This document shows, piece by piece, positions 1,977 to 21,002 of a DNA stretch of 32,667 nt. Position numbers and translations under genes: made by a program. The notes beneath the pieces were generated by a model. It was not told the DNA's origin, did no database searches, and saw nothing but the letters and a program-made list of their open reading frames with translations. The stretch covers positions 1-32,667 of the forward strand of contig DASUHM010000006.1 in NCBI GenBank assembly GCA_036273515.1. The letters are read 5' to 3'. Position 1 is the stretch's first letter. Each line of letters begins with the position of its first letter. The stretch comes from Gaiellales bacterium (GTDB lineage: Bacteria; Actinomycetota; Thermoleophilia; Gaiellales; JAICJC01).

Positions 1977-3080
1977 GTGCGCATCCTGATCGTCTGCGAC
2001 TTCCTCTTCAAGTACGGATCGCAACAGGCGCGATCGTTGGTACACGCCGGCCATGACCTAGCGATACTTTGCCGGTCGCACGCGCTCGAGTTCGGCGGCC
2101 TCGAGCACGAGCGCGAGGAGGTGCACGACCGCCTGCGCGGAGACGGCATCCGGATGCTCGTCGTCCCCGGACGCGTGCGATCCGCCTCGGCGCTGCCCGC
2201 GCTGCTCGGCATCCGCCGCACCCTGCGCCGCTGGCGCCCCCACGTCGTCCACGTGCACGAGAACCACGACCCCCGTCTGCTCGCGCTCACGGCCGGCTAC
2301 CGGACGGTGCTGACCGTGCACGATCCGCTCGGCCACCCGGGTGCGCCCGAGCTGACCCGCAGCGAGAACTGGGCGTTCCGGCGCTGGTTCCACCGCGCCG
2401 ACCGCTTCATCGTCCACGGCCAGGCGCTCGTGCCCGAGCTGCGGCCGATCGTCGGCCCGCGCCGGCCGATCGCCGTCATCCACCACGGCGCCGACGCCCG
2501 CGCCGAGCCGCTGCCGCCACCGGCGGAGCCGGTCGTGCTCCTGTTCGGGCGGCTCGAGCGGTACAAGGGCGTCGAGGTGCTGGTGGCCGCCATGCAGCGC
2601 GTGTGGGAGCAGCGCCCGGACGCGCGCCTGGTGGTCGCGGGGGAGGGCCCGGCGGCCCAGCTCGTGCCCGACGACCCACGCACGACGCTCCTGGCGCGCT
2701 ACATCTCCGAGGCCGAGGTCGACGGCATCCTGGAGCGGGCCCGGCTCGTCGCCCTGCCCTACACGCAGGCCAGCCAGAGCGGCGTCGGGATGCTGGCGAT
2801 CGCCGCGGGCGTCCCCGTCGTCGTGAGCGACCTCGGCTCGCTGCCGGAGCTGGCCTACGACGACTCGTTCGTCGCGGCCGCCGGCGACGCGCGGGCGCTC
2901 GCCGACACGATCCTGCGCCACCTCGACGACGGCCCCGACGTCCGGGCGCGGGTGCTGGCGCACACCCGGGCCGAGTTCTCGTGGGAGGAGGCGGCCAGGC
3001 GGACGACGGAGCTCTACCGCGAGCTCGTCAGTGCGACGCCGTCAGGAGCGCAGGAGCACGACCCCGCTGGTCGCGGGTAG
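1977..3080 (+). CDS. GT4-family glycosyltransferase
   Basis: A 367-residue GT-B fold glycosyltransferase. The N-terminal domain starts VRILIVCDFLFKYGSQQA and includes VVHVHENHD and TVLTVHDPLG; the donor-binding domain has VLLFGRLERYKGVEVLVAAM and LVVAGEGP. The usual E-x7-E loop is altered to LPYTQASQSGVGMLAIAAGVPVV, as in some GT4 subfamilies where the first Glu is replaced. It would transfer a sugar from a nucleotide donor to a lipid-linked or soluble acceptor at the cytoplasmic membrane. I chose the GTG at 1977 because homology-like sequence begins there and the upstream reading is antisense to the aminotransferase. The 3-prime end overlaps the convergent GHL15 gene by 39 bp. Donor and acceptor are unknown. 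Confidence 0.85.
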   Translation: MRILIVCDFLFKYGSQQARSLVHAGHDLAILCRSHALEFGGLEHEREEVHDRLRGDGIRMLVVPGRVRSASALPALLGIRRTLRRWRPHVVHVHENHDPRLLALTAGYRTVLTVHDPLGHPGAPELTRSENWAFRRWFHRADRFIVHGQALVPELRPIVGPRRPIAVIHHGADARAEPLPPPAEPVVLLFGRLERYKGVEVLVAAMQRVWEQRPDARLVVAGEGPAAQLVPDDPRTTLLARYISEAEVDGILERARLVALPYTQASQSGVGMLAIAAGVPVVVSDLGSLPELAYDDSFVAAAGDARALADTILRHLDDGPDVRARVLAHTRAEFSWEEAARRTTELYRELVSATPSGAQEHDPAGRG

Positions 3081-4280
3081 CTTCACCGTTCGTACACGCC
3101 CGAGACCGGATCCGATATACGTCGAACCGAGATGTACTGCCCTCGTGGCGTTCGCATGCGGATTCACCAGAACGACACCACGACTGAAGTCACGCCGGTA
3201 GTCACCGTTACGTAACACGCGGTAGGGGCCGAGCGCCTTGCCGAGCCGTTTCGTCAGGTCGTACTCGGGCCACCAGACTTCCTTCGTGTAGTTCGTCGAC
3301 GCGTAGAGCGCGCTGTTGCCGTTCTCCGCGAGCAGCATCGTCGCGAGCGCGTAGCGGGCGCCGCTGCGGGTGCGGGTGACGGCGTGATCGAGGCTGAGCT
3401 TGCCGTGCTTCTCCGACCACAGGTTGTGGCCGAACTTCGCCGGCCAGAGGCCGTTGCGCACGGAATCTCGGCCGGCGCCGCCGTTCGTGTAGGACTCCTC
3501 CATGGCGCCGTCGAGGGGGCCGTTCCACTTCGGCCACAGGCCCTTCGTGACCGTCGAGCCGCCGATGTTCGCGACCACGAGCAGTCCGGCGGACCGCAGC
3601 TGCGGCGCCACGTTCTGGAAGAACGAGTAGACGGCCGCCTGCCAGGTCGCGTCGGTCGGGTATTTCACGCACTGGCTCGAGCCGCCCGCAATCACCCAAC
3701 GCAGCGACGCGTTGGCGTCGTCGAGGAAGATCCCGTCGAAGCCGCCCGCATGGGCGTCGGCGATCACGCGCGCGACGCCGATCTGCTGATAGTCGGGGTT
3801 GCCGACGTCCATCACCCGCGAGCTGGGGTAGTCCTCGAACACGAGCCGCTCGCCGGCGGGCCCCGTGAGGAACCAGTCGGGATGCGCCGTGGCGTCGTCC
3901 CACGAGGCCCAGTCGGCCTCACCGGTCGGGTCATTCGGGTCGGCGCTCATCATGTCGACGTACATGAACACCTTGAGGCTCGGGTTCTGGGCCTTGAGCC
4001 GCGCGACATCCGCCGCGTCGGTCCGGTGCATGACCATGTACGAATACCGGTCGCGCTCGCGGGCCGCGTTTGCGCGCGCGGGCGCCGAGCCGTAGAGGAC
4101 GCGGAAGAACGGGGTGCCGATCGGCGCGCCCGCGGCAGCAGCCAAGGCTCCCCTCGACGGAGGCGACTTGCCGTCGGTCGGACCGGCAAGCCAGAACGCG
4201 GCCGCCCCCAGCGCGGCTGCGCACAACACCGCCGACATCCCCCGACGGATTCCGATGCGGGCGAACAGGTGTGTTCCCAT
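3042..4280 (-). CDS. Secreted GHL15-type putative glycoside hydrolase
   Basis: From the ATG at 4280 the protein is 412 residues. It begins with a short basic segment and a hydrophobic stretch (MSAVLCAAALGAAAFWLAG), a signal peptide or membrane anchor. The body has a TIM-barrel-like series: FMYVDMM, DWFLTGPAG, VMDVGNPDYQQ, GFDGIFLDDAN with acidic residues suited to catalysis, LLVVANIGG, AMEESYTNGG and ALYASTNYTKEVWWPEYDL. This pattern matches the hypothetical glycosyl hydrolase family GHL15. A longer start at 4328 is open, but it would begin inside the promoter region; the 4280 start has GGAG a few bases upstream. It overlaps the convergent glycosyltransferase by 39 bp. Context suggests trimming or turnover of the exported polysaccharide; the substrate is unknown. 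Confidence 0.75.
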   Translation of the reverse strand: MGTHLFARIGIRRGMSAVLCAAALGAAAFWLAGPTDGKSPPSRGALAAAAGAPIGTPFFRVLYGSAPARANAARERDRYSYMVMHRTDAADVARLKAQNPSLKVFMYVDMMSADPNDPTGEADWASWDDATAHPDWFLTGPAGERLVFEDYPSSRVMDVGNPDYQQIGVARVIADAHAGGFDGIFLDDANASLRWVIAGGSSQCVKYPTDATWQAAVYSFFQNVAPQLRSAGLLVVANIGGSTVTKGLWPKWNGPLDGAMEESYTNGGAGRDSVRNGLWPAKFGHNLWSEKHGKLSLDHAVTRTRSGARYALATMLLAENGNSALYASTNYTKEVWWPEYDLTKRLGKALGPYRVLRNGDYRRDFSRGVVLVNPHANATRAVHLGSTYIGSGLGRVRTVKLPATSGVVLLRS

Positions 4281-4458: not shown

Positions 4459-5301
4459 GTGCGCGCGACTCAGGTCTTCGACATCGACGCGGCGGTCTTT
4501 GCGGATGCGTTTGCCCGCAAGTCCATGACCGTTCATCACGAGCTGGCCGATCATCCACTGTTCACGATCGACGCGATCGCGGAGCTGGCGGACAGCCTGC
4601 CTCCGGAGTCCGTCCGGCGCGAGCGCGGCGACCTCCCGCTCGCAAACTCGGGGTTCGGGTACAAGGAGGTCGGGCAGGGCCCGCCCTCGGAGAGCATCCG
4701 CGCCGTCGAGGAGAACGGCTTCCGGATCACGCTGCGCGACATCCAGCAGTCGCCCGAGTACGCCGAGGTGATCAACGAGTGCCTCGACGAGGTGGCCGGG
4801 CTCGTGGAGGACCGCGAGGGCGGCATGACCCGCCGCGCGGGCTACCTCTTCATCTCGTGTCCGGCGTCGACGACGCCCATGCACTTCGACGTCGAGCACA
4901 GCTTCCTGCTCCAGGTCAAGGGCACCAAGCACGTGAGCGTCGCCTCCTACGGCGAGGACGTCGTCGCCCGCCACCGCGAGCTCGACCGCTACCTCGACGG
5001 CGAGGAGTGTGACTTCGAGACGATGCAGCGGAACGCGACGATGACCGTGATGGGCCCGGGCGTCGGCGTCTACCTGCCGTCGTATGTGCCCCACTGGGTC
5101 GAGACCAAGGCGGGCATCTCGATCTCGTTCTCGATCCCGTTCTTCACGGCCCACACGGAGCGGGCCGAGGGCGTGACGCGCATAAACGCCCGGCTGCGCA
5201 AGCTGCACCTGTCACCGAAGACGCTCGGTTCCTCCACGTCGTCCGACCGGGCCAAGGCAGCGGTGTTCCGCTCGATCCAGAAGGTGCGGGGAGGGCACTA
5301 G
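4459..5301 (+). CDS. Cupin_8/JmjC-like protein, putative Fe(II)/2-oxoglutarate oxygenase
   Basis: A 280-residue soluble protein with a JmjC/cupin_8-type double-stranded beta-helix. The metal-binding triad looks complete: His142 and Asp144 in TPMHFDVEHSFLLQVKG, and distal His212 in YLPSYVPHWVE. The segment FLLQVKGTKHVSV matches the family's strand carrying a 2-oxoglutarate-binding Lys. Family members hydroxylate proteins or small molecules. Here the neighbours are a glycan hydrolase and the EPS operon, so a surface-polymer or regulatory substrate is possible, but nothing in the sequence proves it. The GTG start at 4459 follows an AAGGGGG ribosome-binding site at 4448-4454, and a TACGCT box lies at 4387-4392. 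The gene converges on the EPS operon, with terminator hairpins between. Confidence 0.72.
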   Translation: MRATQVFDIDAAVFADAFARKSMTVHHELADHPLFTIDAIAELADSLPPESVRRERGDLPLANSGFGYKEVGQGPPSESIRAVEENGFRITLRDIQQSPEYAEVINECLDEVAGLVEDREGGMTRRAGYLFISCPASTTPMHFDVEHSFLLQVKGTKHVSVASYGEDVVARHRELDRYLDGEECDFETMQRNATMTVMGPGVGVYLPSYVPHWVETKAGISISFSIPFFTAHTERAEGVTRINARLRKLHLSPKTLGSSTSSDRAKAAVFRSIQKVRGGH

Positions 5302-5397: not shown

Positions 5398-6912
5398 TCA
5401 CAGCCGCCGCACACGCCGCCCCCCGTCGAGACACTCGTAGCGGGAGTCGAAGGTGTAGGTGTGCGTGCCGACGAGGCCCGGTAGCCAGTCGGGCTCGATG
5501 CGCGCGGCAGGGGTCTCGCGGTAGGCAGTCGGCGTGAGCAGGTCGACGCGGTTCAGGACGATGGCGCCGCCGTAGCGGCGGGAGCCATCCTGGGCCGGGC
5601 GGTAGTGGGCGCCGTCGCGCTGGTAGAGGCGCCCGGCCGGGCGCGAGCGGCCCGGGTCGGTCACGACCGGGTTGGCCGGGTGCGGCGTCCAGGCGGCGTC
5701 GAGCGCCGGCGCCGAGAAGAGGTGCAGGACGCCCGGATCGGCCGGCCCTTCGACCACGCTCGCGAACAGCCAGCAGGTGCCGTCGTCGGCGATGTGGAGG
5801 GTGGCGTCGTGCGCGGTGATGCCCTCGATCAGCACCCGCTCGAGCCGCCACGGGCCGGGCAAGCCGACGGCCGTGTGAAGCTCGATCCGGCCCGCCTCAC
5901 CGGTCTCCGGGATCATGTGAACGACGCCGCCGTGCGCGAACACGAACGGGTAGGAGAGGTGGTGGTCGCGCACGAGCACCCGTTCAGGCGGGCCCGGAGC
6001 GCCGCCGGCGCCGAGCTCGAAGGCGGAGATGGCGCCACGCCCCGTGGCGAGGTCGAGGTCCTCGCAGAAGACGAGGTGGCGGCCGTCCGCCTCGATGACG
6101 AACGGGTCGGCCAGATAGCGGCCGGGCGGGTTCGGGACGATGCGCGGCGGGCCGACGATGCGCCCGTCGGCCGACCGCTCCCGCACGGCGATGAACCACT
6201 CCTCCCGGCTCCACGCGCACCGGCCGCGGGCGGCGACGCCGCGAACGCCGGTGCGCGCGGCGTGGAGCGCCATCGCGGCCGGCGCCGCAGCCTGCACACC
6301 AGCGGCGGCCTCGGCGCCCGCCGGGGCGCCGCCGTTGCGGGCAGCCCGGCGCAGCGCCCGCAGCACGAGCCGCGCGCCGGCCCACGCCGCGGCGTCGCGG
6401 GTGCGCGTCACGGACAGCGGATCGGCGAGCGAGGTGCAGCGGTCGACGACGTGGGACGGCCCGTCGCCGTCCAGCGCGAGGAGCGTCGTCTCCGTCGGCG
6501 CTCGCAGGCCCACGTCGCGGGCCCGCTCGGGCGGGCCGCCCGGCCCGCCGTCGTCGAGCGGTGCGAGCGTCCACGTCCCCAGCCGCGGCGGCCGTCCCGG
6601 CCAGCCACGGCGTCCGGCGGGCAGGAACGAGACCACGACGTGCACCTCGCCGTCGACCGCGACGGGCTCGAGCCGGGCGGGCCGCAGGGCCGGCGCGGCG
6701 CCGAACACGCGGGCATCGAGCCGGTCGTACGCGGCGCGGACGCGCGCCGCCGTCCCACCGCCCCCACCGCCGCCCGGCGCCCGCACGACGGCGACCAGCT
6801 CGCACTCCTCGTCGGCGGCGATCCGGCCCGCCGTCCAGGCCACCCACTCCGGCACCGCCAGGTCGGGAACGACCAGGGCGACCCGCAGGGGCCGCGCGGG
6901 CTCAGGCGCCAT
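5398..6912 (-). CDS. Degenerate formyltransferase-like domain fused to a GINT1-like beta-propeller
   Basis: A 504-residue two-part protein. Residues 9-190 follow the layout of a formyltransferase N-domain (LRVALVVPDLAVPEWVAWTAGRI, EVHVVVSFLPA, LGTWTLAPLD, PTETTLLAL), but the Asn-x-His catalytic stretch is absent, so formyl transfer is unlikely. After an Ala/Gly-rich linker, residues 237-500 show five-blade propeller motifs: GRYLADPFVIEADGRHLVFCEDLD, SYPFVFAHGGVVHMIPET, TAHDATLHIADDGTCWLFAS, GRLYQRDGAHYRPAQDGS and GTHTYTFDSRYECLDG. These resemble the domain in plant glucosamine inositolphosphorylceramide transferase 1 and GH43-like folds. It is the last gene of the EPS operon; its ATG at 6912 overlaps the upstream stop by 11 bp. 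A longer reading start at 6966 lies inside the upstream gene and is less likely. Role in glycan transfer or modification is inferred. Confidence 0.72.
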   Translation of the reverse strand: MAPEPARPLRVALVVPDLAVPEWVAWTAGRIAADEECELVAVVRAPGGGGGGGTAARVRAAYDRLDARVFGAAPALRPARLEPVAVDGEVHVVVSFLPAGRRGWPGRPPRLGTWTLAPLDDGGPGGPPERARDVGLRAPTETTLLALDGDGPSHVVDRCTSLADPLSVTRTRDAAAWAGARLVLRALRRAARNGGAPAGAEAAAGVQAAAPAAMALHAARTGVRGVAARGRCAWSREEWFIAVRERSADGRIVGPPRIVPNPPGRYLADPFVIEADGRHLVFCEDLDLATGRGAISAFELGAGGAPGPPERVLVRDHHLSYPFVFAHGGVVHMIPETGEAGRIELHTAVGLPGPWRLERVLIEGITAHDATLHIADDGTCWLFASVVEGPADPGVLHLFSAPALDAAWTPHPANPVVTDPGRSRPAGRLYQRDGAHYRPAQDGSRRYGGAIVLNRVDLLTPTAYRETPAARIEPDWLPGLVGTHTYTFDSRYECLDGGRRVRRL

Positions 6913-8104
6913 TCGGCGCACCGAGCAGGCGCTCGTAGGCGGCGACCAGGCGCGGCCCGCCCGCACGCTCCCAGCTGATCCGCTCGCGGAAGCGCTCGCG
7001 CGCCGCCGCGCCCAGGCCGTTGGCCCGCTCGGGATCGGCGAGCACGGCGCGGAGGGCGGCCGCGAGCCCCGCGGCGGTCATGTCGGGCGCGTACTCGAGC
7101 GTCTCGCCGGCCAGCCGCTCGGTCTGCGGCAGGCGGTGAGCGACAATTGGCGCGCCCGCCGACATGTACTCGACCACCTTCACGAACGTGGCGAGACGGT
7201 TGAAGGCCGAGTCGGCCTCGGGCGCGACGCACACGTCGGCCGACCGCACGAGCGAGGCGATCCGGTCGCGGTCGCGCACGAAGCCGAGCCACTCGAAGGC
7301 GGCGGCGACGCCGCGATCACGGGCGCGGCGCTGCACCGTGTCAAGCGCCGAGCCGGCGCCGGCGACGACGACCTTGACCCGGCCCGGAAGACCGAGCTCG
7401 GCGACCGCGTCGACGAGGCGGTCGACGTCGTCCTGCTCGCCGATCGTGCCGACGTAGGCGAGCAGGTGGTCGGCGCCGTCGCCCCAGCGCGGATCGGCGG
7501 CCACGTCGGGGAGCGACCAGCCGTTCGGGACGACCTCGCTGTCGCCGCGCAGGAGCCCGTCCCGCTCGGCCCGGGCGCGGTACTCCGCGTTCGCAAAGAC
7601 GACCAGCCCGGCGGCCGCAAAGCTCCACCGCTCGATGCGCCGCGCCGTCGTCATCAGCGGCCGCCGAAGCGGCGTCTGCGGGAACTTCTCCTCGAGCAGC
7701 ACCGGCGCCGCATCGTGCTGGTCGAACACGAACCGGGGCGTCGAGCCCTGCACCGGCCGAAGCGCCCGGCGGGCGAGGAAGAAGTTGTCCGGCGGGTTGC
7801 CGGCGTGCACGACCGCGACCGGGGCCCGCCGCGCCGCCCGGCGCAGGGCAAGCAGCGCCCACGCCATCGCCTGCTGCTGCTCGCGGATCTGGCCGACGAC
7901 ACCCCGACCCTCGCGCGGCTGCGGGTAGAGCTCGAGGTTGACCCGCGCGCCCGTCATCGCCCGCACCGCCCCGGGCGAGCGGGAGCCGCCGACGAGCGTC
8001 ACCGTGTAGCCGGCCTCCGCCAGCGTCTCCGCCTCGCGGCGCGGGCGCAGGTCGATCTCGAGCGCCGCGTTCTGGTTCACGATCACGACGTGCGGGGCGC
8101 TCAC
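6902..8104 (-). CDS. GT4-family glycosyltransferase (WbuB-like)
   Basis: A 400-residue GT-B glycosyltransferase. The acceptor domain has VVIVNQNAALEIDLRPRREAETLAEAGYTVTLV, VVHAGNPPDNFF and FVFDQHDAAPVL. The donor domain has EVVPNGW, LLAYVGTIGEQDDVDRLVDAV, VKVVVAGAGS and PEADSAFNRLATFVKVVEYMSAGAPIV, the acidic donor-site loop of the WbuB-type GT4 group. The GTG start at 8104 overlaps the upstream stop in a 4-bp GTGA, and the 3-prime end overlaps the propeller gene by 11 bp, so it is embedded in the operon. It should add one sugar to the lipid-linked repeat unit on the cytoplasmic face; donor and linkage are not deducible. Confidence 0.87.
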   Translation of the reverse strand: MSAPHVVIVNQNAALEIDLRPRREAETLAEAGYTVTLVGGSRSPGAVRAMTGARVNLELYPQPREGRGVVGQIREQQQAMAWALLALRRAARRAPVAVVHAGNPPDNFFLARRALRPVQGSTPRFVFDQHDAAPVLLEEKFPQTPLRRPLMTTARRIERWSFAAAGLVVFANAEYRARAERDGLLRGDSEVVPNGWSLPDVAADPRWGDGADHLLAYVGTIGEQDDVDRLVDAVAELGLPGRVKVVVAGAGSALDTVQRRARDRGVAAAFEWLGFVRDRDRIASLVRSADVCVAPEADSAFNRLATFVKVVEYMSAGAPIVAHRLPQTERLAGETLEYAPDMTAAGLAAALRAVLADPERANGLGAAARERFRERISWERAGGPRLVAAYERLLGAPNGA

Positions 8105-9213
8105 CGGCCCACCGCCCCCAGCAGCTCGGCGTAGCGGCCGGTCATCGCGTCGATCGAGAACGCCCGCCGCTGGCGCTCGCGCCCCGCCCGTCCGAGCGCC
8201 CCGGCGCCATCGCGGTCACGGGCGAGCGCGACCAGCGCCTCGGCCATCTCCTGCGGCCGGTCGCGCGCCACGAGGATGCCCGTCTCACCGTCGGCGACCG
8301 CCTCGCCCACGCCGCCGACCGCCGTCGCGATCACAGGCCGCCCGAGCGACATCGCCTCGAGGACGGTCATCGGCAGCGCCTCGACGGCGCTCGTAAGGCA
8401 GAAGACGTCGGCGGCGGCGATCACGTCGAGCGCGTCGGCCCGGTAGCCGACGGCCCGCACCGCCCCGTCGCTGCGGCCCACGGCCGCGTCGACCGCTTGC
8501 GCGTCCGGCCCGGCGCCGACCACGATCCCGCGCACCGCCGGCTCGACGCGATGGGCCGCGGCGGCCTGCTCCACGAAGGTCACGGCCCGCTTCTCCGGCC
8601 GAAGCGCGGCCACGAGCACCGCCAGGAACTCGTCCGGGGCGACGCCGAGCTCGGCCCGCACCCGCTGGCGCGGGCGCACCGCCGGGTCGGGGGCGACGCC
8701 GTTTGGGATCACCCGGATCGCGCCGCCCGGATAGCCGTCGCGGACGAGGTGCTCGCGCTGGCTCCGGGCGACGGTGACGACCGCCGCCACGCGCGGACGC
8801 ACGGGCCGAAGCAGCGCCTGCTGGTGGCGGCGCAGCGGCCGCACGCCCAGCGGATCGGGGCCGAGATGCTCGGTGACGACGTGGGCCGCCCGCTGGCGAC
8901 GGGCGAGCGCATGGCCGACGACGTGCGCGCTCGTGCCGCGGCTGACGACGACGGACGAGCTCGGGCCGGCGAGGCGCAGGGCGCGGGCCAGGCCGGCCGG
9001 ATCGGCCCGGTGGCGCAGCCGGGCGCACGCCACGGGGACGCCGCCCGCCGCGAGATCGTCGAAGTACGCGCCGCGGCCGTCGAGCGTGACGACGCCGACG
9101 TCGAAGCCGCGCTCGGCCAGCCCGGGCAGGAGCGCGAGCCACTGCCGCTCGGCGCCGCCCGCCTCCAGGTTCGGGCACACGAACACGAGCCGGGGGCGGC
9201 CGTTGCGGGTCAC
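8101..9213 (-). CDS. GT4-family glycosyltransferase
   Basis: A 370-residue retaining GT4 enzyme. The N-terminus RLVFVCPNLEAGGAERQWLALLPGLAERGFDV is the classic GGAE acceptor-domain loop. VIPNGVAPD, LVAALRPEKRAVTFVEQAAA and GIVVGAGPDAQAV follow. The E-x7-E donor motif is intact in EALPMTVLEAMSLGRPVIATAVGG. The GTG start at 9213 overlaps the upstream gene by 4 bp and the stop overlaps the next gene by 4 bp, marking tight translational coupling within the EPS operon. It likely builds the repeat unit at the membrane; sugar specificity is unknown. Confidence 0.9.
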   Translation of the reverse strand: MTRNGRPRLVFVCPNLEAGGAERQWLALLPGLAERGFDVGVVTLDGRGAYFDDLAAGGVPVACARLRHRADPAGLARALRLAGPSSSVVVSRGTSAHVVGHALARRQRAAHVVTEHLGPDPLGVRPLRRHQQALLRPVRPRVAAVVTVARSQREHLVRDGYPGGAIRVIPNGVAPDPAVRPRQRVRAELGVAPDEFLAVLVAALRPEKRAVTFVEQAAAAHRVEPAVRGIVVGAGPDAQAVDAAVGRSDGAVRAVGYRADALDVIAAADVFCLTSAVEALPMTVLEAMSLGRPVIATAVGGVGEAVADGETGILVARDRPQEMAEALVALARDRDGAGALGRAGRERQRRAFSIDAMTGRYAELLGAVGR

Positions 9214-10184
9214 CGCGCCCGCCCGGCGAGGAGGCGGCGGTAGACCGCGAGGACGCGCTCGGCGATCGGCCGACGGCCGTACGCCTCCATCGCCGCGCGC
9301 AATCGCAGGTCACCGCCGGCTCGAAGGGCGTCCTCCACGGCGGCGGCCAGCGCGTCGGGCTCGCGCGCGGCAATGGCGCATCCCGGCAGGCCGCGGACGA
9401 GATCCGGCACGTCGCCCACCGCGACCGAGACGACCGGCGTCCCCGAGGCGAGCGCCTCCTTCACCGCCACCGGCGCCCCCTCCCGCGCCGAGGTCATCAC
9501 CGCCACGTCGGCAGCCCGCATCGCCAGCGCCACCTCGTGCCGGAGCAGGCCGTCCAGGCTGGCCGCGTGAGCGTCCGGGATGCGGCGGCGCACCCGCTCG
9601 ACCGTCGCGTCGAACACGTCGACGCGCTTGTTGGCCGCCTTCGAGCGGTCGCCGCGGGCGGCCGGGAAGAGGATGCAGGGCCCCTCCTGCGCCCAGCCCA
9701 GCCGCCGGCGGGCATCGGCCCGGTCGCCCGGGCGGAACAGGTCGAGGTCGACGGCGCACGGGATCACCGGCGCGCGGCCGTCGAGCCGAAGCGCTGCGGC
9801 GACCACCGGCGCGACCGCGATCGGCTGCGTCCGCCGCGCGACCGCCTGCGACACGCGCCGCTGCCACCGCACCCAGGCGTCGCTGCCGTGGAACGTCGTC
9901 ACCACCGGCGTGCGCAGCTGCGCCGCGGCGACCGCGCCGGACAGGCCGTAGTGGGCGTGGACGAGGTCGAAACGGCCACGGCGCAGCGCCCGCCGAAGCG
10001 TCCCGGCCGCCGCCAGATAGCGGCGCTTGTCGCGGCGGCCGTCGAACGCCTGCACCTCGGCCTCGGCCCCGAGCGCGCGCAGGTCCTCGACCTGGTCGCG
10101 CACGAAGCAGCCGACGTGCGGCTCGGCCGCCGTCGGATACATGTTCGTGAGCACCAGCACCCTGATGTCGCCGTGGCCTGGCAT
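9210..10184 (-). CDS. GT4-family glycosyltransferase
   Basis: A 324-residue GT-B enzyme starting IRVLVLTNMYPTAAEPHVGCFVRDQVEDL, a common GT4 opening. It continues with LVHAHYGLSGAVAA, VVTTFHGSDAW, VIPCAVDLDLFRPGD, an ILFPAARGDRSKAANKRVDVFDA donor-domain start and the E-x7-E motif REGAPVAVKEALASGTPVV. It is shorter than many GT4 proteins but has both Rossmann-like domains. The ATG at 10184 lies 23 bp after the dehydrogenase stop, the only real gap in the operon. It probably adds one residue to the lipid-linked saccharide; donor and linkage cannot be predicted from sequence alone. Confidence 0.9.
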   Translation of the reverse strand: MPGHGDIRVLVLTNMYPTAAEPHVGCFVRDQVEDLRALGAEAEVQAFDGRRDKRRYLAAAGTLRRALRRGRFDLVHAHYGLSGAVAAAQLRTPVVTTFHGSDAWVRWQRRVSQAVARRTQPIAVAPVVAAALRLDGRAPVIPCAVDLDLFRPGDRADARRRLGWAQEGPCILFPAARGDRSKAANKRVDVFDATVERVRRRIPDAHAASLDGLLRHEVALAMRAADVAVMTSAREGAPVAVKEALASGTPVVSVAVGDVPDLVRGLPGCAIAAREPDALAAAVEDALRAGGDLRLRAAMEAYGRRPIAERVLAVYRRLLAGRAR

Positions 10185-10207: not shown

Positions 10208-11254
10208 TCAGGCCGCTCCCAGGAGCGACCCCTCGGCGGCCTCGATCATGCGCACGACGTCGAGGCCGAGCTGCGGCGAGGAGCGCGGGATCGAGCCGGA
10301 GCGGATCGCGTGGCAGAAGTCCTCCATCTGCAGGCCGATCGGCTCGGCCGGGTCGAGCCGGGGCGAGACGATGTCGCCGGCGCGGTAGTTCAGGAACTCG
10401 CCGAACGACTCCGGGTTACGAGGCACGACGCTCGAGTCGTAGACGCGCACCGGCTCGTTGCTGCAGTCGTCGTAGACCACCATCTTGCTCGAGCCGACCA
10501 CGGTCGTCCGCCGCAGCTTGCTGGGCGCGAGCCAGGCGAGCTCGATGTGCGCGATCGTGCCCGAGTCGAACTCGCAGCTGATGAACGCCACGTCCTGCTG
10601 GCCGGGCACGATGCACGCCCGCCCCATCGTCATCACCCGCGACGGCAGCTCCCCGAGCCAGTACATGAGGATCGAGAAGTCGTGCGGCCCGAGATCCCAG
10701 AGGACGCTCACGTCGGACTGGTGCATGCCCAGGTTCACCCGCGACATCGAGACGAAGTAGATGTTGCCGAGCTCGCCGGAGCGGATGAGGTCGCGGATCC
10801 GGATCACGGGCGGGCTGTAGAGGAACGTGTGCCCCGGCATCAGCACGAGGTCGCGCTCCTCGGCGGTGCGGATCAGCTCCCGAGCCAGCTCGGAGGACGG
10901 CGCCAGCGGCTTCTCGACGAAGACGTGCTTGCCCGCCTCGAGGGCGCGCATCGCGAGGTCGTAGTGGGTCGAGACGGGCGTGACGACGCAGACGGCGTCG
11001 AGCTCCGGGTCGTCCAGCATCTCGTCGAAGTCGCACGTCTGGCGGACGGCCGGGAAGCGGCGGCCGAGCTTCTCGAGCAGCCCGGGGTCCAGGTCGCACA
11101 TCCAGGCCGCCTCGGCCCCGTCGAGCTCGCTCAGGTTGCGCACCAGGTTCGGCCCCCAGTAGCCGAGCCCGACGACGCCGACGTTCACGGCCGGGCGCTC
11201 GGACTCGCCCCGGCGGGCCGAGACGACGTCCGGCTGGTGGAGGTCGAGCGTCAT
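10208..11254 (-). CDS. Gfo/Idh/MocA-family nucleotide-sugar dehydrogenase, WbpB/WlbA-like
   Basis: A 348-residue NAD(P)-dependent oxidoreductase. The Rossmann motif GLGYWG is at 29-34, and the family hallmark EKP at 114-116 in HVFVEKPLAPSSELA carries the catalytic-region Lys115. WDLGPHD (186-192) supplies the conserved His191 near the substrate. The enzyme probably oxidises a nucleotide-sugar hydroxyl to a keto group. In the WbpB/WbpE/WbpD route this is the C3 ketone of a UDP-hexuronate, which a DegT enzyme aminates and a hexapeptide enzyme acetylates; both partner types are encoded at 265-1894. The ATG at 11254 overlaps the upstream stop by 4 bp; the longer same-frame reading is a shadow of the upstream gene. 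Exact substrate is inferred. Confidence 0.85.
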   Translation of the reverse strand: MTLDLHQPDVVSARRGESERPAVNVGVVGLGYWGPNLVRNLSELDGAEAAWMCDLDPGLLEKLGRRFPAVRQTCDFDEMLDDPELDAVCVVTPVSTHYDLAMRALEAGKHVFVEKPLAPSSELARELIRTAEERDLVLMPGHTFLYSPPVIRIRDLIRSGELGNIYFVSMSRVNLGMHQSDVSVLWDLGPHDFSILMYWLGELPSRVMTMGRACIVPGQQDVAFISCEFDSGTIAHIELAWLAPSKLRRTTVVGSSKMVVYDDCSNEPVRVYDSSVVPRNPESFGEFLNYRAGDIVSPRLDPAEPIGLQMEDFCHAIRSGSIPRSSPQLGLDVVRMIEAAEGSLLGAA

Positions 11255-12756
11255 ACGGTCGCCTTCCGCTGGCGCAGCATCTCGGCGGGCGTGCGCAGGA
11301 TCAGCCGCAGATCGAGGCCGAGCGACCAGCTGCGCACGTAGGCGACGTCCATCTCGAGCGCCTCGGCGAACGGCGCGCGCGCCCGCGCCTTCACCTGCCA
11401 CAGGCCGGTCAGCCCCGCCGGCATCTGGAAGCGCTCGTAGTGGTGCGGCGCGAAGTGCTCGGTCTCGTAGTCGAGGCACGGCCGCGGTCCGACGAGCGAC
11501 ATCTCGCCGCGCAGGACGTTCCAGAGCTGGGGCAGCTCGTCGAGGCTCAGCCGCCGCAGCGACCGCCCCGTCGGCGTGATCACGTCGTGGCGGTCGAGCT
11601 TGTAGAGCTCGCCGGCGGCCGCGTCGCCGTTCATCGACTGGGCCACGAAGTCGCGATGCCCGGACGCGTCCGCGTCGGCGCTCATCGTGCGGAACTTGAG
11701 CATCGTGAACTCGTTCATATCCTCGCCGAGCCGGGTCTGGCGGAAGAAGACGGGGCCGGGCGTCTCACGCGGGATCCGCCACCACGCCCACACGAAGACC
11801 GGCGCCGCGAGCACGAGGCCGATGCCGGCGCCGACGATGTCGATCCCGCGCTTCACGAGCAGCAGCCGACGCGGGCGGCGGCGGGGCGAGAGGCTGACGA
11901 GCGGGATGCCCTCGACGTCGGGCAGGCCGAGATCGGGGCCGATGATCTCGAACATGCGCGGGACGACGTCGACGCGCACGTCCTGGCGCATCAGCGGGCG
12001 GACGTGGGTGAGCACGTCACCGTCGTTGTGCTTCGAGAAGGCGACGATGACGCGCTCGACGCCGCGCTCGCGGACGATCCGGGCGAGGTCGTCCATCACC
12101 CCGAGGACGGGGACGCCGGCGACCTCGCGGCGGACGCGCTTCGGCGGCGCGTCCACGAAGCCGACGAGTTCGATGCCGTACTCCGGGTGGTGCAGGAGCT
12201 TGCGGGCGACGAGCTGGCCGACGTCGCCGGCGCCGACGATCACGGCGCTCTGGGCGTAGGCGCTGCGGCGGCGGGCGGCCGCCCGCACGGCCATCCGGCC
12301 CGAGACGACGAAGACGACGGCGAGCGCGGCGAACACCACGAGGCGGGCGGTCGCGGGCTGGCCCAGTCCCGCCGGCCAGGCGATGGCGAGGACGAGCCAC
12401 GTCCCGACCACCATCAGCCGGCCGACGTTCGTCCACTCGCCGCCCCGCCCGAGCAGCTCGCGGCCCGGCTCGGCGGCGTAGAGCCCGTACAGCCGGGCGC
12501 CCGCGAACCAGCCCGGCAGGGCGAGGGCGAGGAGCAGCACGCCCTCGGCGTGGACGCCCGCCCGCCCGTGCATGGTGGGGATGGCCATGCTCGTGACCAG
12601 GAACGCCGCCACGAGCGCGATCCCGTCGCTCGCGGCCAGCAGCGGCACGATCGGGCCCGGTCGCGACCGCACGGCCGGGGCCGGCCCGGCCGGCACTGCG
12701 GCGGCCCGCAGCTCTGGCGGCTCGGCCGTCGCGGCGACGATCCGCTCCTCAGACAC
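11251..12756 (-). CDS. Polyprenyl-phosphate sugar-1-phosphate transferase (WcaJ/WbaP type)
   Basis: A 501-residue membrane enzyme that should start repeat-unit synthesis by moving a sugar-1-phosphate from a UDP-sugar onto undecaprenyl phosphate. Four hydrophobic segments lie in residues 36-160, followed by a CoA-binding-like Rossmann domain (VIVGAGDVGQLVARKLL, 173-188) and a further helix before the catalytic domain (about 300-501). Catalytic-domain motifs are complete: TMLKFRTM (351-358), LSLDELPQLWNVLRGEMSLV with the Asp406-Glu407 pair, GPRP (423-426) and GLTGLWQV (448-455). It overlaps its neighbours by 8 and 4 bp and is the second operon gene. Sugar choice (glucose, galactose or other) cannot be told from these motifs. 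Confidence 0.93.
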   Translation of the reverse strand: MSEERIVAATAEPPELRAAAVPAGPAPAVRSRPGPIVPLLAASDGIALVAAFLVTSMAIPTMHGRAGVHAEGVLLLALALPGWFAGARLYGLYAAEPGRELLGRGGEWTNVGRLMVVGTWLVLAIAWPAGLGQPATARLVVFAALAVVFVVSGRMAVRAAARRRSAYAQSAVIVGAGDVGQLVARKLLHHPEYGIELVGFVDAPPKRVRREVAGVPVLGVMDDLARIVRERGVERVIVAFSKHNDGDVLTHVRPLMRQDVRVDVVPRMFEIIGPDLGLPDVEGIPLVSLSPRRRPRRLLLVKRGIDIVGAGIGLVLAAPVFVWAWWRIPRETPGPVFFRQTRLGEDMNEFTMLKFRTMSADADASGHRDFVAQSMNGDAAAGELYKLDRHDVITPTGRSLRRLSLDELPQLWNVLRGEMSLVGPRPCLDYETEHFAPHHYERFQMPAGLTGLWQVKARARAPFAEALEMDVAYVRSWSLGLDLRLILRTPAEMLRQRKATV

Positions 12757-14299
12757 GGCTCGTGTCCTTGTGTCCGTTCGACCGGTACCCGTAGCCGTCG
12801 GAGTAGCCCGGCCCGCCCTCGCTCCCAGTGGCGATGAAGCCGAGCTTCTGGGCCGGGCAGGTCTCGAGGATGCGGCGCGTCTCGGCCAGCGTCACCCGCC
12901 GGATCGCATGCAGCTCGGTGACGACCACCACGGCGTCGGCGGCGGTCGCGATCGCCATCGCGTCACCGACCGCGAGCATCGGCGGCGAGTCGATCAGGAG
13001 CACGTCGCAGCGCTTCGTCAGCGCGCGCACGGCGTCGGTGACGAACCGCGACGAGAGGAACTCGCCCGGATCGGGCGGCGCCGCACCCACCTTCACGACC
13101 TCGAGGATGCCGGTGTCCGTCACCGAGGAGTCGGCGTGGACGTCGACCACGTTCAGCGCGTCCGCCATGGTCGCGTCGCCGGCCGCGACGCTCGTCAGCC
13201 CCGGCCGGCCCGCCAGGTCGAAGAAGCGGTCGACGCCGGGCTGGCGCACGTCGAGGTCGAGCAAGATCACGTGCCGCCCGGAGCGGGCCAGCGTCACGGC
13301 CAGATTCGCGGCGGTGGTCGACTTGCCCTCGCCCTGCATCGTCGACGTGATCACGATCGAGGCCACGCCGTGCTGGAGCCGGGTGATGTCGAGGCTCGTC
13401 CGCAGCATCCGGAAGGCCTCGGCCCCAGCGCCGGTCGGCTCCGCCAGCGCCGCCAGGCCGGTGCCGTTCAGATGCGGATCCGGCGGCGGCACGTGGCCGA
13501 GCAGCGGCAGGCCGAGCCGGTCGCGCACCTCGTCAGCCGAGCGCACCCGCGTGTCCAGCGCCTCGCGCAGGAACGCCAGCGCGACGCCGAGGACGATGCC
13601 GATCAACAGGCCCAGCGCGACGTTCCTGGTCGTCTTCGGCTGCACCTGCGTCGCCGAGCCGGCGGGGCCGACGACGATCGCGCTCGACCCGGCCGAGCGC
13701 ACGGTCTGCAGTGCCTCGAGGTCGCGCTCGTTGCGGGTCAGCTGGCGGAAGAGCGGTGACCTCCCCCGGCCGGCGGCGGAGAGCGTCGCCAGCCTCCGCT
13801 GAACGTCCGCGATCGCGGCCGTGAGCGCCTGGACGTCAAGCCGGCGGCGGTAGGCCGTGTAGGCGTGGGCGTAGGCGGTGGCGAGCTTCTCCGCCACGGC
13901 CGGGTCGGGATCGGTGACCGAGAACGAGAGCAGATCGGCCGCGGGATTCGCCGTGACGGTCGAGCTCGCCAGCAGCTCGCCGGCGGTCTTCCCCGGCACT
14001 CCCGCGGCGCCGACGGCCAGCTGCGCCACGGTGCCGACGCGGGCCAGCGCCGCCTGGGTGGCGGCGTAGCGGTCGGGCGGCCCCGTGATCTGCGAGTTCA
14101 GGTCGAGGGCCACGCCCGTCGCGCTCTGCTCGTTCACGAGCACGGTCGCCGTCGACTCGTACAGCGCTTGCTGCTGATGCGAGACGACCAGCGCGATGAC
14201 GGGCACCACGACGACAGCCGCGATCACGATCAGCCGCTGCCGCACAAGCATGGCGACCCAGTCGCGGAAGACTGACTCGTCGCTCCAACGTTCGCTCAA
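12749..14299 (-). CDS. Polysaccharide co-polymerase fused to BY-kinase (Wzz/Wzc-like)
   Basis: A 516-residue protein controlling export and chain length of the polymer. Two transmembrane segments (about 23-40 and 226-244) frame an extracytoplasmic Wzz domain. The cytoplasmic C-terminal half is a bacterial tyrosine kinase: Walker A TSTMQGEGKSTTAANLA with Lys326, Walker A-prime VILLDLD (Asp348/Asp350), Walker B VLLIDSPPML (Asp437). A short tail with Tyr499, Tyr503 and Tyr505 offers autophosphorylation sites, although it is less Tyr-rich than in Wzc. Kinase and Wzz parts are one chain, as in proteobacterial Wzc and unlike the split Firmicutes system. The TTG at 14299 follows GGGAG at 5-nt spacing. 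First gene of the EPS operon, preceded by a 270-bp leader region. Confidence 0.9.
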   Translation of the reverse strand: MSERWSDESVFRDWVAMLVRQRLIVIAAVVVVPVIALVVSHQQQALYESTATVLVNEQSATGVALDLNSQITGPPDRYAATQAALARVGTVAQLAVGAAGVPGKTAGELLASSTVTANPAADLLSFSVTDPDPAVAEKLATAYAHAYTAYRRRLDVQALTAAIADVQRRLATLSAAGRGRSPLFRQLTRNERDLEALQTVRSAGSSAIVVGPAGSATQVQPKTTRNVALGLLIGIVLGVALAFLREALDTRVRSADEVRDRLGLPLLGHVPPPDPHLNGTGLAALAEPTGAGAEAFRMLRTSLDITRLQHGVASIVITSTMQGEGKSTTAANLAVTLARSGRHVILLDLDVRQPGVDRFFDLAGRPGLTSVAAGDATMADALNVVDVHADSSVTDTGILEVVKVGAAPPDPGEFLSSRFVTDAVRALTKRCDVLLIDSPPMLAVGDAMAIATAADAVVVVTELHAIRRVTLAETRRILETCPAQKLGFIATGSEGGPGYSDGYGYRSNGHKDTSRV

Positions 14300-14378
14300 G
14301 GCCGCTCCCGCCCACGCACGCCCAAGCTGGGGCCGCGCGGGAGTTCTTGCTCACGCCGTCTTTTTAAGCCCCACTACC

Positions 14379-14478
14379 AGCCGTGCATTCTCCAGGGAGT
14401 TCCCTCTGTAGCACCCGGGTCCCTTGTACGCCCACCGGGACCCGCGGGCCAAGCTCCGAGACCGCGAGGTGCACGACT
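14379..14478 (-). promoter_or_regulatory. Possible structured leader upstream of the EPS operon
   Basis: The 270-bp gap 14300-14569 lies between the ChrA stop and the BY-kinase start and holds no convincing gene. On the minus strand, AGTCGTGCA (14478-14470) can pair with TGCACGGCT (14387-14379), 9 bp with one G-U. Inside is a perfect 7-bp hairpin GGGTCCC/GGGACCC (14443-14417), plus smaller stems CGCGG/CCGCG and AGGG/CCCT. A TAGCGT box at 14488-14493 could be the promoter. It does not match any riboswitch consensus I know. Part of it may instead terminate the ChrA transcript. Confidence 0.35.
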
Positions 14479-14569
14479 TCCGCAGGCACGCTAGCACCGG
14501 GTTTTCGCCCTCCGACGGGATCCATACCACGGAGGATCGGCCCGCGATGTGCTATGTCCGGGACCGCCC

Positions 14570-15706
14570 TTACCCGGGGATGTGCGCGCCGGCGAGGAGC
14601 GCCAGCTCGCCGGCGACGGCGGCCGCCAGCAGCACGGCGACGATGCTGCGCCGCGCCAGGAGCAGCGCCGCCGTCGCACCGGCGAGCACGACGTACTGCC
14701 AGTCCTCGCGCAGCTCGCCGGCGAGGAGCACGGACGACCCCGCGATCGCGCCGATCGCCGCCGGGCCGGCGCCCTCGAGGAAGGCGCGGGCCGTCACGTT
14801 CCCGCGCAGACGGTCGAACCGCGACCAGCCGGCGAGCATGAAGACGAACGACGGCAGGAACGCGACCAGCGCGGCCAGGAGCGCCGCGCCGACGCCCCCG
14901 GCGGCGTAGCCGACCGCCGCCACGGTCCCCACCACAGGCCCTGGCGTGACCTGGCCGAGCGCGACCGCGTCGAGGAACTGCGGCCCCGTCATCCAGTGAT
15001 AGCGGGAGACGGCGTCGGACTGCATGAGCGGGATGATCACGAAGCCGCCGCCGAAGCTGAGCGCGCCCACCTTGAACGCCGTCCAGGCGAGCGACCCGAG
15101 CCCGGCGGCGTGCGGCGCGACGGCCAGGCTGATGGGCCCGGTGCGACCGACCCGGATCAGCACCTCGAGGCCGCCGCAGCCCACGAGCGCGAGCACGACG
15201 AACGGCCCGGCCAGGGCGCTCGCCGCGAAGCCGGCGGCGACGTAGGCGATCCAGCGCAGGTGCCTGGCACCGTCGCCGGCCCGCCGCCAGGACGGCAGCG
15301 CCAGGTCGAGCGCCGCCCGCACCGCGACCGCGGCGACGGCCGCGCCGCCGCCCGCTCCGGCGGCACGCACCCAGTCCGGGGGCGACGACGAAAGGAAGAG
15401 CGCCGCGAGCGCGATGATGACGACGAGGCCGGGGACGATGAACCCCGCACCGCCGACGAGCGCCCCCGGCCGGCCGCCCACCCGGCCGGCGCAGAAGATG
15501 GCGAGCTGCGTCGATGACGGCCCCGGCAGCAGGTTGCACGCGGCGATCGCGTCCTCGAACTCCTCGGCCGGGATCCACTCCCGCCGCTCCACGCACAGCT
15601 GGCGCAGGAGCAGGATGTGCGTCGGCGGCCCACCGAACCCGATCGCCCCCAGGCGCCACCACTCCCTCGCGACGGCGCGGAGCGGCTCAGCCGTGCGCGG
15701 CGGCAC
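14570..15706 (-). CDS. chrA: ChrA-family chromate/anion transporter (two-domain)
   Basis: A 378-residue inner-membrane protein with about 10-12 hydrophobic segments and two CHR half-domains. The first carries GAIGFGGPPTHILLLRQLCVERREWI and NLLPGPSSTQLAI; the second carries GALSFGGGFVIIPLMQSDAV and ALGQVTPGPVVGTVA. These paired FGGP/FGGG and PGP motifs are diagnostic of the long-chain CHR family, whose best-known members export chromate. Many environmental relatives have no proven substrate, so resistance is likely but not certain. It starts with GTG at 15706, overlapping the SixA stop by 20 bp, and appears to end the CHAD-SixA-ChrA chain. Confidence 0.88.
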   Translation of the reverse strand: MPPRTAEPLRAVAREWWRLGAIGFGGPPTHILLLRQLCVERREWIPAEEFEDAIAACNLLPGPSSTQLAIFCAGRVGGRPGALVGGAGFIVPGLVVIIALAALFLSSSPPDWVRAAGAGGGAAVAAVAVRAALDLALPSWRRAGDGARHLRWIAYVAAGFAASALAGPFVVLALVGCGGLEVLIRVGRTGPISLAVAPHAAGLGSLAWTAFKVGALSFGGGFVIIPLMQSDAVSRYHWMTGPQFLDAVALGQVTPGPVVGTVAAVGYAAGGVGAALLAALVAFLPSFVFMLAGWSRFDRLRGNVTARAFLEGAGPAAIGAIAGSSVLLAGELREDWQYVVLAGATAALLLARRSIVAVLLAAAVAGELALLAGAHIPG

Positions 15707-16181
15707 GCAGCATCTTCGGCGTGGCGAGCCACAGGAGCACCGCGTCCGTGGCGTCGCCCCCCGGGGCGAGGGTGACGTCGAGGCAGGCGCACCCGGCCTT
15801 GCGCAGGTCGACGAACCCGAGCGGCCGGGTCGTGCACACCTGCTCCACGAGCTCGCTCAGCATCGGCTCGTGCCCGACGATCATGACGGTCTCCTCCGTG
15901 CGGACGGCGAGCGCCGAGAGCGCCGGCCCGGGGGGCCCGTCGGCGAGCTCCGCCATGACCTCGATCGGGCTGCCGAACGCCTCGGCGGCCGCGTCGGCGG
16001 TCTGGCGGGCGCGGGCCTTCGGGCTCGTCAGGATCACGTCGGGCGGGTCGGAGAACGCGGTCAGGCCGCGGGCGGCCTTGCGGGTGCGCTCGACCCCGTG
16101 CGGGGTCAGCACGCGCGAGGCGTCCGTGCCGTCTGCGGAGACGTCCTCGGCGATGCCGTGTCTGAAGACCAGGAGGCGCAC
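15687..16181 (-). CDS. sixA: SixA-type phosphohistidine phosphatase
   Basis: A 164-residue histidine-phosphatase-superfamily protein of SixA size. It begins MRLLVFRHGIAED, with the catalytic His8 in the RHG motif. LTSPKARARQTAD supplies the phosphate-binding Arg and Ser region, and VMIVGHEPMLSEL the second catalytic His. SixA removes phosphate from histidine phosphotransfer proteins or phosphotransferase components. The gene lies 2 bp after the CYTH-CHAD stop and overlaps the ChrA start by 20 bp. CHAD proteins bind polyphosphate, so linkage to a small phosphatase is suggestive of phosphate metabolism. The actual substrate is not known. Confidence 0.88.
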   Translation of the reverse strand: MRLLVFRHGIAEDVSADGTDASRVLTPHGVERTRKAARGLTAFSDPPDVILTSPKARARQTADAAAEAFGSPIEVMAELADGPPGPALSALAVRTEETVMIVGHEPMLSELVEQVCTTRPLGFVDLRKAGCACLDVTLAPGGDATDAVLLWLATPKMLRAAAHG

Positions 16182-16183
16182 GG

Positions 16184-17620: not shown

Positions 17621-17624
17621 GGCG

Positions 17625-17658
17625 CGATCGTACCAACGGGCCGATCGTCCCAACGGGG
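17625..17658. repeat. Two 17-bp tandem repeats carrying the CYTH-CHAD -10 box
   Basis: Two adjacent 17-bp units (17625-17641 and 17642-17658), of form CGATCGTnCCAACGGGn, match at 15 of 17 positions. The first includes TACGAT on the minus strand (17627-17632), 6 nt before the CYTH-CHAD GTG. The location suggests a duplicated operator or promoter element. Confidence 0.6.
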
Positions 17659-17682
17659 CGATTCCGCGCACCGGCGACATGG

Positions 17683-17688
17683 CAGAAT
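17683..17688 (+). promoter_or_regulatory. Candidate -10 box for the ParA-like gene
   Basis: CAGAAT ends 6 nt before the GTG at 17695, with no Shine-Dalgarno sequence between. This fits a leaderless transcript. Confidence 0.45.
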
Positions 17689-17694
17689 GGCGGC

Positions 17695-18576: not shown

Positions 18577-18577
18577 C

Positions 18578-18605
18578 CGGGGTCTGACCCCGAACGGATC
18601 CCGTT
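18578..18605. terminator. Paired hairpins between convergent genes
   Basis: CGGGGT/ACCCCG around CTG (18578-18592) is followed directly by AACGG/CCGTT around ATC (18593-18605). The second hairpin overlaps the stop codon of the phosphoesterase gene. They likely terminate transcripts from both sides. Confidence 0.6.
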
Positions 18606-19509: not shown

Positions 19510-19536
19510 GATTGGACCCCCTACCCCTCGTTGCCT

Positions 19537-19548
19537 GCCCGCGCGGGC
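19537..19548. promoter_or_regulatory. Perfect palindrome at the phosphoesterase transcription start region
   Basis: GCCCGC joined to GCGGGC makes a 12-bp perfect palindrome just downstream of the predicted -10 box on the minus strand. It may bind a regulator; nothing else supports that. Confidence 0.35.
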
Positions 19549-19549
19549 C

Positions 19550-19577
19550 ACCATAGCGCCCGGAGATTGGAACGCAA
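19550..19577 (-). promoter_or_regulatory. Promoter of the secreted phosphoesterase gene
   Basis: On the minus strand TTGCGT (19577-19572) and TATGGT (19555-19550) are 16 bp apart, a good sigma-70-type match about 40 bp before the ATG. Confidence 0.55.
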
Positions 19578-19582
19578 GCGGC

Positions 19583-19616
19583 TATGCTCGCCGCAGAATT
19601 CTCACGATCGAGGAGG
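19583..19616 (+). promoter_or_regulatory. -10 box and ribosome-binding site of the class III aminotransferase gene
   Basis: TATGCT at 19583-19588 is a likely -10 box. GAGGAGG at 19610-19616, 8 nt before the ATG at 19625, is the strongest Shine-Dalgarno match in this part of the window and fixes that start. Confidence 0.6.
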
Positions 19617-19624
19617 CGTTCCAG

Positions 19625-20953: not shown

Positions 20954-20958
20954 GCCTC

Positions 20959-20995
20959 GGGGCCTGGCCCCGCCGTGAAGGCGGGGCCAGGCCCC
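20959..20995. terminator. Strong bidirectional terminator hairpin
   Basis: Two perfectly complementary 16-nt arms (20959-20974 and 20980-20995, GGGGCCTGGCCCCGCC and its complement) flank a 5-nt GTGAA loop. It fills the 49-bp gap between two convergent stops. Confidence 0.8.
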
Positions 20996-21002
20996 AGCTT
21001 CC

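What the first reader, a model, noticed from the sequence alone, without database searches (positions are those of the whole stretch)
5398..6912. GINT1-like beta-propeller fused to a formyltransferase-like head without catalytic residues
The last EPS-operon gene joins a formyltransferase fold that lacks the Asn-x-His active site to a propeller resembling the one in plant glycosylinositolphosphorylceramide glycosyltransferases. Placed with three GT4 enzymes and a DegT/acyltransferase route, it may be a glycan-tailoring or lipid-glycan transfer enzyme of unknown chemistry. The link to the propeller family is from remembered motif similarity; the missing triad is seen in the sequence.
Basis: partly seen in the sequence, partly recalled or inferred. 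Interest (0 to 1): 0.62.

Follow-up and report, generated by a model that had tools for sequence, protein, structure and literature searches.

The report
Formyltransferase-relic head on sugar-enzyme propeller
The last gene of this polysaccharide operon encodes a worn-out formyltransferase fold joined to a five-bladed propeller of a widespread but biochemically uncharacterised sugar-building family, whose only genetically tested relative is needed to finish the outer sugars of Acinetobacter lipooligosaccharide.

Summary
Window 5398-6912 (-) is an intact 504-aa gene. Residues 263-468 match Pfam GINT1_N (E 2e-26), and the AlphaFold model (pLDDT 91) is a five-bladed propeller closest to GH130/GH159/GH43/GH62 enzymes (Z about 20-22). 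The head modelled alone matches formyltransferases (Z up to 11.6). Its Asn-x-His is Thr-x-Ala; the aligned Asp (D148) remains. Even the least degraded relatives (27 of 65 headed proteins) have Ser-x-His, and intact and degraded heads are intermingled on the propeller tree, best read as repeated loss. The propeller keeps an essentially invariant polar set (D269, E284, H318, S320, E336, D369, H411, R424, R438, Q441, H484, D496), also in head-less members. So the propeller is the working part and the head a relic scaffold. The family lies in polysaccharide clusters of many bacterial phyla and archaea. Acinetobacter baumannii ghy/orf1 ('2898') is a propeller-only member, a link I found in no paper read here. 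Published disruption shortens LOS and clean deletion partly loses two outer HexNAc residues, arguing against degradation. Best reading: a cytoplasmic glycan-assembly enzyme, probably a propeller-fold glycosyl transferase; chemistry unproven. The plant-lipid reading is not supported: no GT64 domain.

The parts
5398..6912 (-). 504-aa protein P0001: degenerate formyltransferase head (about 1-200), helical linker (211-234), five-bladed GINT1_N propeller (235-504)
6310..6888 (-). head domain, residues 9-201; Thr115-Leu-Ala117 (window 6562-6570) stands where formyltransferases have Asn-x-His; Asp148 aligns with the triad Asp
5401..6210 (-). propeller domain, residues 235-504; near-invariant polar set D269 E284 H318 S320 Y321 E336 D369 H411 R424 R438 Q441 H484 D496
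6902..8104 (-). GT4 glycosyltransferase, overlaps the start of the propeller gene by 11 bp
8101..9213 (-). GT4 glycosyltransferase
9210..10184 (-). GT4 glycosyltransferase
10208..11479 (-). Gfo/Idh/MocA oxidoreductase (ORF; true start probably inside)
11251..12756 (-). Bac_transf initiating sugar-phosphate transferase
12749..14299 (-). Wzc-type chain-length/BY-kinase-like ATPase (Pfam ParA/AAA_31/CbiA)

Best explanation
A two-domain, apparently cytoplasmic glycan-assembly protein. The C-terminal five-bladed propeller (GH43/GH130/GT108-like fold) is the working part: its essentially invariant acidic and basic residues, placed on the inner and second strands of the blades, form a sugar-binding active site that works in the synthetic direction. 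Most likely it transfers a sugar, or helps transfer one, to the growing repeat unit made by the adjacent GT4 enzymes. The N-terminal head descends from a formyltransferase domain. It has lost the Asn-x-His, so it cannot work by the known formyl-transfer mechanism, and in this protein it is most likely only a scaffold or a nucleotide-sugar/partner-binding relic. Shown: both folds by model, family membership, residue conservation, gene context, and the published LOS phenotype of a relative. Inferred: catalysis, the direction of the reaction, and the role of the head.
For: Invariance or near-invariance (41-43 of 43 in degraded-head rows at every polar position named except Glu466) of the propeller polar set regardless of head state, in headed members and in head-less ones. 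Intact and degraded head motifs are intermingled on the propeller tree: 17-20 changes on the best tree, at least 3-5 forced by strongly supported branches. Clan fold match to carbohydrate-active enzymes, Z about 20-22; 36 of 70 members also match Pfam GH43 at E<0.01. Genes lie in polysaccharide loci in many phyla. A. baumannii ghy/orf1 is a member: GINT1_N E 7e-34, 35% identity over 240 aa, position and orientation match OCL1. ISAba1 insertion in ghy gives truncated LOS (PMC4110982). Clean deletion of 2898 partly loses the two outermost HexNAc residues (PMC10936431). Precedent that five-bladed propellers can be glycosyltransferases: GT108 (PMC8476585, PMC8950772).
Against: No member has been assayed, as far as I found. 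The delta-2898 phenotype is partial, and the gene is also conserved in strains without HexNAc in the outer core (PMC10936431), which a simple dedicated HexNAc transferase does not explain. The ISAba1 insertion may act through an opposing promoter (PMC4110982). Residue-level correspondence with GH43/GH130/GT108 catalytic residues could not be established: profile alignments slip by blades. The tree is a quick one and its deep branches are weak.
Confidence: 0.5

Rival explanations
1. Non-catalytic adaptor: the propeller binds the acceptor glycan (lectin-like) and hands it to, or stabilises, a partner glycosyltransferase such as the GT4 encoded next to it.
For: Partial rather than complete loss of sugars in delta-2898 (PMC10936431); overlap with a GT4 gene; GT4 genes are the most frequent neighbours.
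Against: About a dozen near-invariant polar positions spread over all five blades across bacteria, including acidic and basic groups, is more than a lectin site usually keeps.
Confidence: 0.22
2. Editing glycoside hydrolase: a cytoplasmic GH43-like enzyme that removes wrongly added sugars from lipid-linked intermediates, so that loss leaves blocked, partly truncated chains.
For: Weak GH43 profile similarity in half the members; fold; the partial truncation, and the conservation of 2898 in strains without outer-core HexNAc, would fit.
Against: P0001 itself does not reach Pfam GH43; the mBio authors doubt a hydrolytic role; no obvious export signal in P0001, so a degradative role is unlikely.
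Confidence: 0.15
3. The head is still an acyl/formyl-type transferase with altered chemistry and the propeller is its substrate-binding module.
For: In 27 relatives the head keeps a W-S-x-H-H-x-D...R-G-x-P...E...D pattern that is invariant or nearly so; a DegT aminotransferase and a hexapeptide acyltransferase gene are in this window.
Against: Here the motif is gone; 38 of 65 headed relatives lack it and head-less members exist; DegT genes are not enriched with intact heads (3/17 v 6/28).
Confidence: 0.08

Closest known systems
Acinetobacter baumannii Ghy/Orf1 (OCL1-3; locus '2898' in ATCC 17978)
   Same: Same GINT1_N propeller, 35% identity over 240 aa, all key polar residues present, in a surface-glycan locus; mutants make shorter LOS (PMC4110982, PMC10936431).
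   Different: Propeller only (296 aa), no formyltransferase head; Gram-negative LOS rather than an EPS operon.
Plant GINT1 (glucosamine inositolphosphorylceramide transferase 1), N-terminal domain, PF24793
   Same: Same Pfam domain, well above cut-off.
   Different: Plant GINT1 carries a C-terminal GT64 catalytic domain (general knowledge); P0001 has none. P0001 has a formyltransferase head instead.
Formyltransferases (FMT, ArnA N-domain, PurN, sugar N-formyltransferases), PF00551
   Same: Head fold (Z 9.3-11.6); relatives' heads align to FMT/ArnA by sequence.
   Different: Asn-x-His replaced by Thr-x-Ala; no Pfam match for P0001.
GH130 mannoside phosphorylases/hydrolases and GT108 mannosyltransferase-phosphorylases
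   Same: Five-bladed propeller; GH130 chains are the best structural matches (Z 19-22). GT108 is the precedent for a transferase with this fold.
   Different: No detectable sequence relationship to a small GH130 profile; about 10% identity; catalytic residues not mapped.
GH43/GH62/GH117/GH159 hydrolases
   Same: Fold; weak GH43 profile hits in 36 of 70 relatives.
   Different: P0001 below threshold; hydrolysis implausible for a cytoplasmic assembly gene.

Membership tests
Pfam GINT1_N (PF24793) | Profile score above curated cut-off | tested here: met
   93.1 bits v 27, E 2e-26; all 70 aligned relatives match
Plant GINT1 (GT64) enzyme | C-terminal GT64/exostosin-like catalytic domain | tested here: not met
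   Only GINT1_N found in P0001 at E<=1; the protein ends with the propeller
Formyltransferase (PF00551) | Formyltransferase Rossmann fold | tested here: met
   Head-only model, formyltransferase folds at Z 9.3-11.6
Formyltransferase (PF00551) | Catalytic Asn-x-His (with Asp) | tested here: not met
   Thr115-Leu-Ala117; Asp148 aligned with triad Asp
Formyltransferase (PF00551) | Pfam gathering score | tested here: not met
   No hit for P0001; 8 of 70 relatives match at E<0.01, and L015 scores 21.2 v 26.1
GH43 | Pfam gathering score | tested here: not met
   No hit for P0001 at E<=1; the relatives whose scores are shown reach 11-27 bits v 32.2
GH43 | Asp base, Asp modulator, Glu acid in register | tested here: inconclusive
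   hhalign prob 91% but the register slips between blades
GH130/GT108 | Five-bladed propeller fold | tested here: met
   GH130 5b0p Z 21.9, rmsd 3.1, 244 aligned; GT108 itself is not among the rows shown
GH130/GT108 | Sequence profile similarity | tested here: inconclusive
   hhalign with a 9-sequence GH130 alignment, prob 0.3%; no GT108 profile at hand
GH130/GT108 | Phosphorylase or glycosyltransferase activity | not testable with these tools
   Needs purified protein
Acinetobacter Ghy/Orf1 group | Homologous propeller with same invariant residues in a surface-glycan locus | tested here: met

The most novel reading that the evidence does not exclude
GINT1_N propellers are a glycosyltransferase family of their own, spread over bacteria, archaea and plants, with a five-bladed propeller fold outside GT-A/GT-B/GT-C. 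The plant GIPC enzyme would then carry a second, unrecognised active site, and the formyltransferase head of the bacterial members would be a decaying partner domain.
Probability: 0.35. Interest if true: 0.78.

Novelty: new variant of a known kind. Interest (0 to 1): 0.52.

Why it matters
It ties an orphan bacterial fusion protein, a plant sphingolipid-enzyme domain and the 'cryptic' Acinetobacter LOS gene ghy/2898 (called unclear as recently as 2024) into one family with a shared, testable polar site. If the propeller transfers sugars, it adds a rare fold to the glycosyltransferases and explains a gene that many polysaccharide loci carry without annotation. The repeated decay of the fused formyltransferase head also shows which domain selection keeps.

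Tried and rejected
Single-sequence searches: no PDB match for P0001 and no NCBIfam family. The genome-contig scan with P0001 alone found nothing confirmed; an alignment-based scan then gave at least 556 relatives. A viral-contig scan gave none; phage records gave two partial matches. Asparagine-synthase-like amidotransferase genes looked linked to intact heads (10/17 v 2/28, p 0.0003), but this was exploratory, not phylogenetically independent and not seen in a new sample (0 of 5 intact-head loci), so it is not claimed. DegT aminotransferase enrichment with intact heads: none. Mapping GH43/GH130 catalytic residues by profile alignment failed because the blades slip. GT108 entry 6q50 is not among the 50 VIA rows shown, which says nothing either way. 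The neighbourhood control is small (15 random 20-kb stretches), and several query proteins were taken from the tested loci; with window-derived queries only, 18 of 60 loci v 0 of 15 controls, p 0.016, and GT4 alone is not significant.

Full report
CHECK OF THE OBSERVATION. The reading frame is as stated: 504 aa on the minus strand, 6912 to 5398. Its ATG overlaps the last 11 bases of the upstream GT4 gene, so it is the last gene of an operon that also holds three GT4 genes, a Gfo/Idh/MocA oxidoreductase, an initiating sugar-phosphate transferase and a Wzc-like ATPase. The next gene downstream is convergent (cupin/JmjC). The gene is single in its genome and absent from the four other genomes of its family that are held: it is an accessory gene.

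PROPELLER. Pfam GINT1_N matches residues 263-468 at E 2e-26. The full-length AlphaFold model built on 70 homologues has pLDDT 90.9 and pTM 0.90. It shows a five-bladed propeller whose first two strands (235-259) probably join the last blade (blade assignment is my reading of the strand list). Structural matches are all carbohydrate-active five-bladed propellers: GH130 phosphorylases (5b0p Z 21.9, 9gph Z 21.7), GH159 (7zei Z 21.6), GH43 and GH62; Foldseek puts GH117, GH43 and GH130 first. Half of 70 relatives also give weak Pfam GH43 hits.

HEAD. P0001's own sequence gives no formyltransferase hit. Modelled alone (221 aa, pLDDT 83), it matches only formyltransferase folds at the top: Z 11.6 for the 10-FTHFDH hydrolase domain, 10.9 for FMT, 10.6 for ArnA. 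A profile of 24 less degraded heads from relatives hits FMT and ArnA at E 3e-6 to 5e-6, and that profile aligns over nearly its full length with the profile of degraded heads that includes P0001. The printed alignment places FMT's N-V-H against S-Y-H of the relatives. P0001 against the full-length relative L015 (36% identity) places T115-L-A117 there. The triad Asp aligns to D148. So the head is a formyltransferase fold with Asn and His gone. No head in the family sample examined has the canonical Asn: the least degraded ones are Ser-x-His-His-x-Asp.

WHICH DOMAIN MATTERS. At least 556 stretches in genome contigs encode relatives; 80 loci were read. Most are about 550 aa, head plus propeller. 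Of 65 headed proteins in the 70-row set, 27 keep the S-x-H-H motif and 38 have lost it. On a tree of the propeller alone the two states are intermingled: 17-20 changes on the best tree, at least 3-5 forced by well-supported branches. Since the motif is shared with true formyltransferases, repeated loss is the simplest reading. In contrast D269, E284, H318, S320, D369, H411, R424 and R438 are invariant in all 70 rows, and Y321, E336, Q441, Y447, H484 and D496 are nearly so. Propeller-only members of about 330 aa, common in one Bacteroidota sample (54 of 345 genomes with any match) and sometimes starting with a hydrophobic stretch, keep the same set. By the model's secondary structure these residues sit at the starts of the innermost strands or the ends of the second strands of all five blades, where propeller enzymes have their active site. 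I had no coordinates to measure this; it is inference.

CONTEXT. Relatives lie in polysaccharide loci of Proteobacteria, Bacteroidota, Gemmatimonadota, Acidobacteriota, Chloroflexi, Actinomycetota and haloarchaea. Frequent neighbours are GT4, GT2, asparagine-synthase-like amidotransferase, sugar epimerase, DegT, Wzx, Wzc/Wzz and Poly_export. Any of these lay within about 10 kb in 48 of 60 loci against 2 of 15 random stretches. Because several query proteins came from the tested loci this is biased; with window-derived queries only it is 18 of 60 against 0 of 15 (p 0.016).

EXPERIMENTAL ANCHOR. A tblastn hit in A. baumannii is the gene known as ghy, later orf1, in the LOS outer-core locus: it lies between ilvE and aspS and runs opposite to the gtrOC genes. 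It scores GINT1_N E 7e-34 and is 35% identical to P0001 over 240 aa. Literature: an ISAba1 insertion in ghy goes with clearly shorter LOS than in near-isogenic strains, with the caveat of an opposing promoter (PMC4110982). Kenyon et al. noted an earlier GH43 link and a best outside hit to a 'putative formyl transferase', and changed the name to orf1 (PMC4172580); it was still 'hypothetical' in 2023 (PMC10327509). VanOtterloo et al. [quoted passage not shown] The equation of 2898 with ghy/orf1 rests on locus position, annotation and the shared OCL1-3 module described in PMC4172580.

MECHANISM. Most likely the propeller is a glycan-assembly enzyme. The synthetic direction follows from the mutant phenotype of the relative, from the lack of an obvious export signal in P0001 and from coupling to GT4. 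The GT108 family shows that this fold can carry glycosyl transfer (PMC8476585, PMC8950772). The head is best read as a relic scaffold. Rivals are a non-catalytic acceptor-presenting adaptor, which fits the partial phenotype well; an editing hydrolase that clears misadded sugars, which fits conservation in strains without HexNAc; and a head that still works with altered chemistry, least likely for this copy.

NOVELTY. The domain family is known to Pfam, the fold is known, and the Acinetobacter gene has a published phenotype. What I did not find in the papers read here is the link among them, the formyltransferase ancestry of the head with its repeated decay, and the shared polar site. The library holds open-access papers only, so prior description elsewhere cannot be excluded.

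Noticed in passing
window 4459-5301 (+): A 280-aa cupin/JmjC_2-like protein (E 5e-7) convergent with the propeller gene; possibly a 2-oxoglutarate-dependent hydroxylase next to the EPS operon.
   Followed up: no
window 3042-4241 (-): Protein of the 'hypothetical glycosyl hydrolase 15' family GHL15 (E 2e-33), possibly exported, beside the EPS operon.
   Followed up: no
window 14367-22149 (-): Several long ORFs (14367-15662, 15160-16200, 18485-20689, 20689-22149) without any Pfam family; the first may be the EPS polymerase or flippase, others may be non-coding frames of this GC-rich DNA.
   Followed up: no
L015, L023, L048, L070: In several intact-head loci an asparagine-synthase-like amidotransferase gene lies next to the head-propeller gene (8 bp away in L015). 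Enriched over degraded-head loci in the first sample, not in the second.
   Followed up: partly
L163, L190, L226-L237: A distinct propeller-only GINT1_N subgroup of about 330 aa, some with an N-terminal hydrophobic stretch, common in a Bacteroidota sample and often near GT4/GT2 genes.
   Followed up: partly
L011 8107-9858: A haloarchaeal (Halorussus plasmid) member with an intact-type head in a polysaccharide locus, so the fusion spans Bacteria and Archaea.
   Followed up: no
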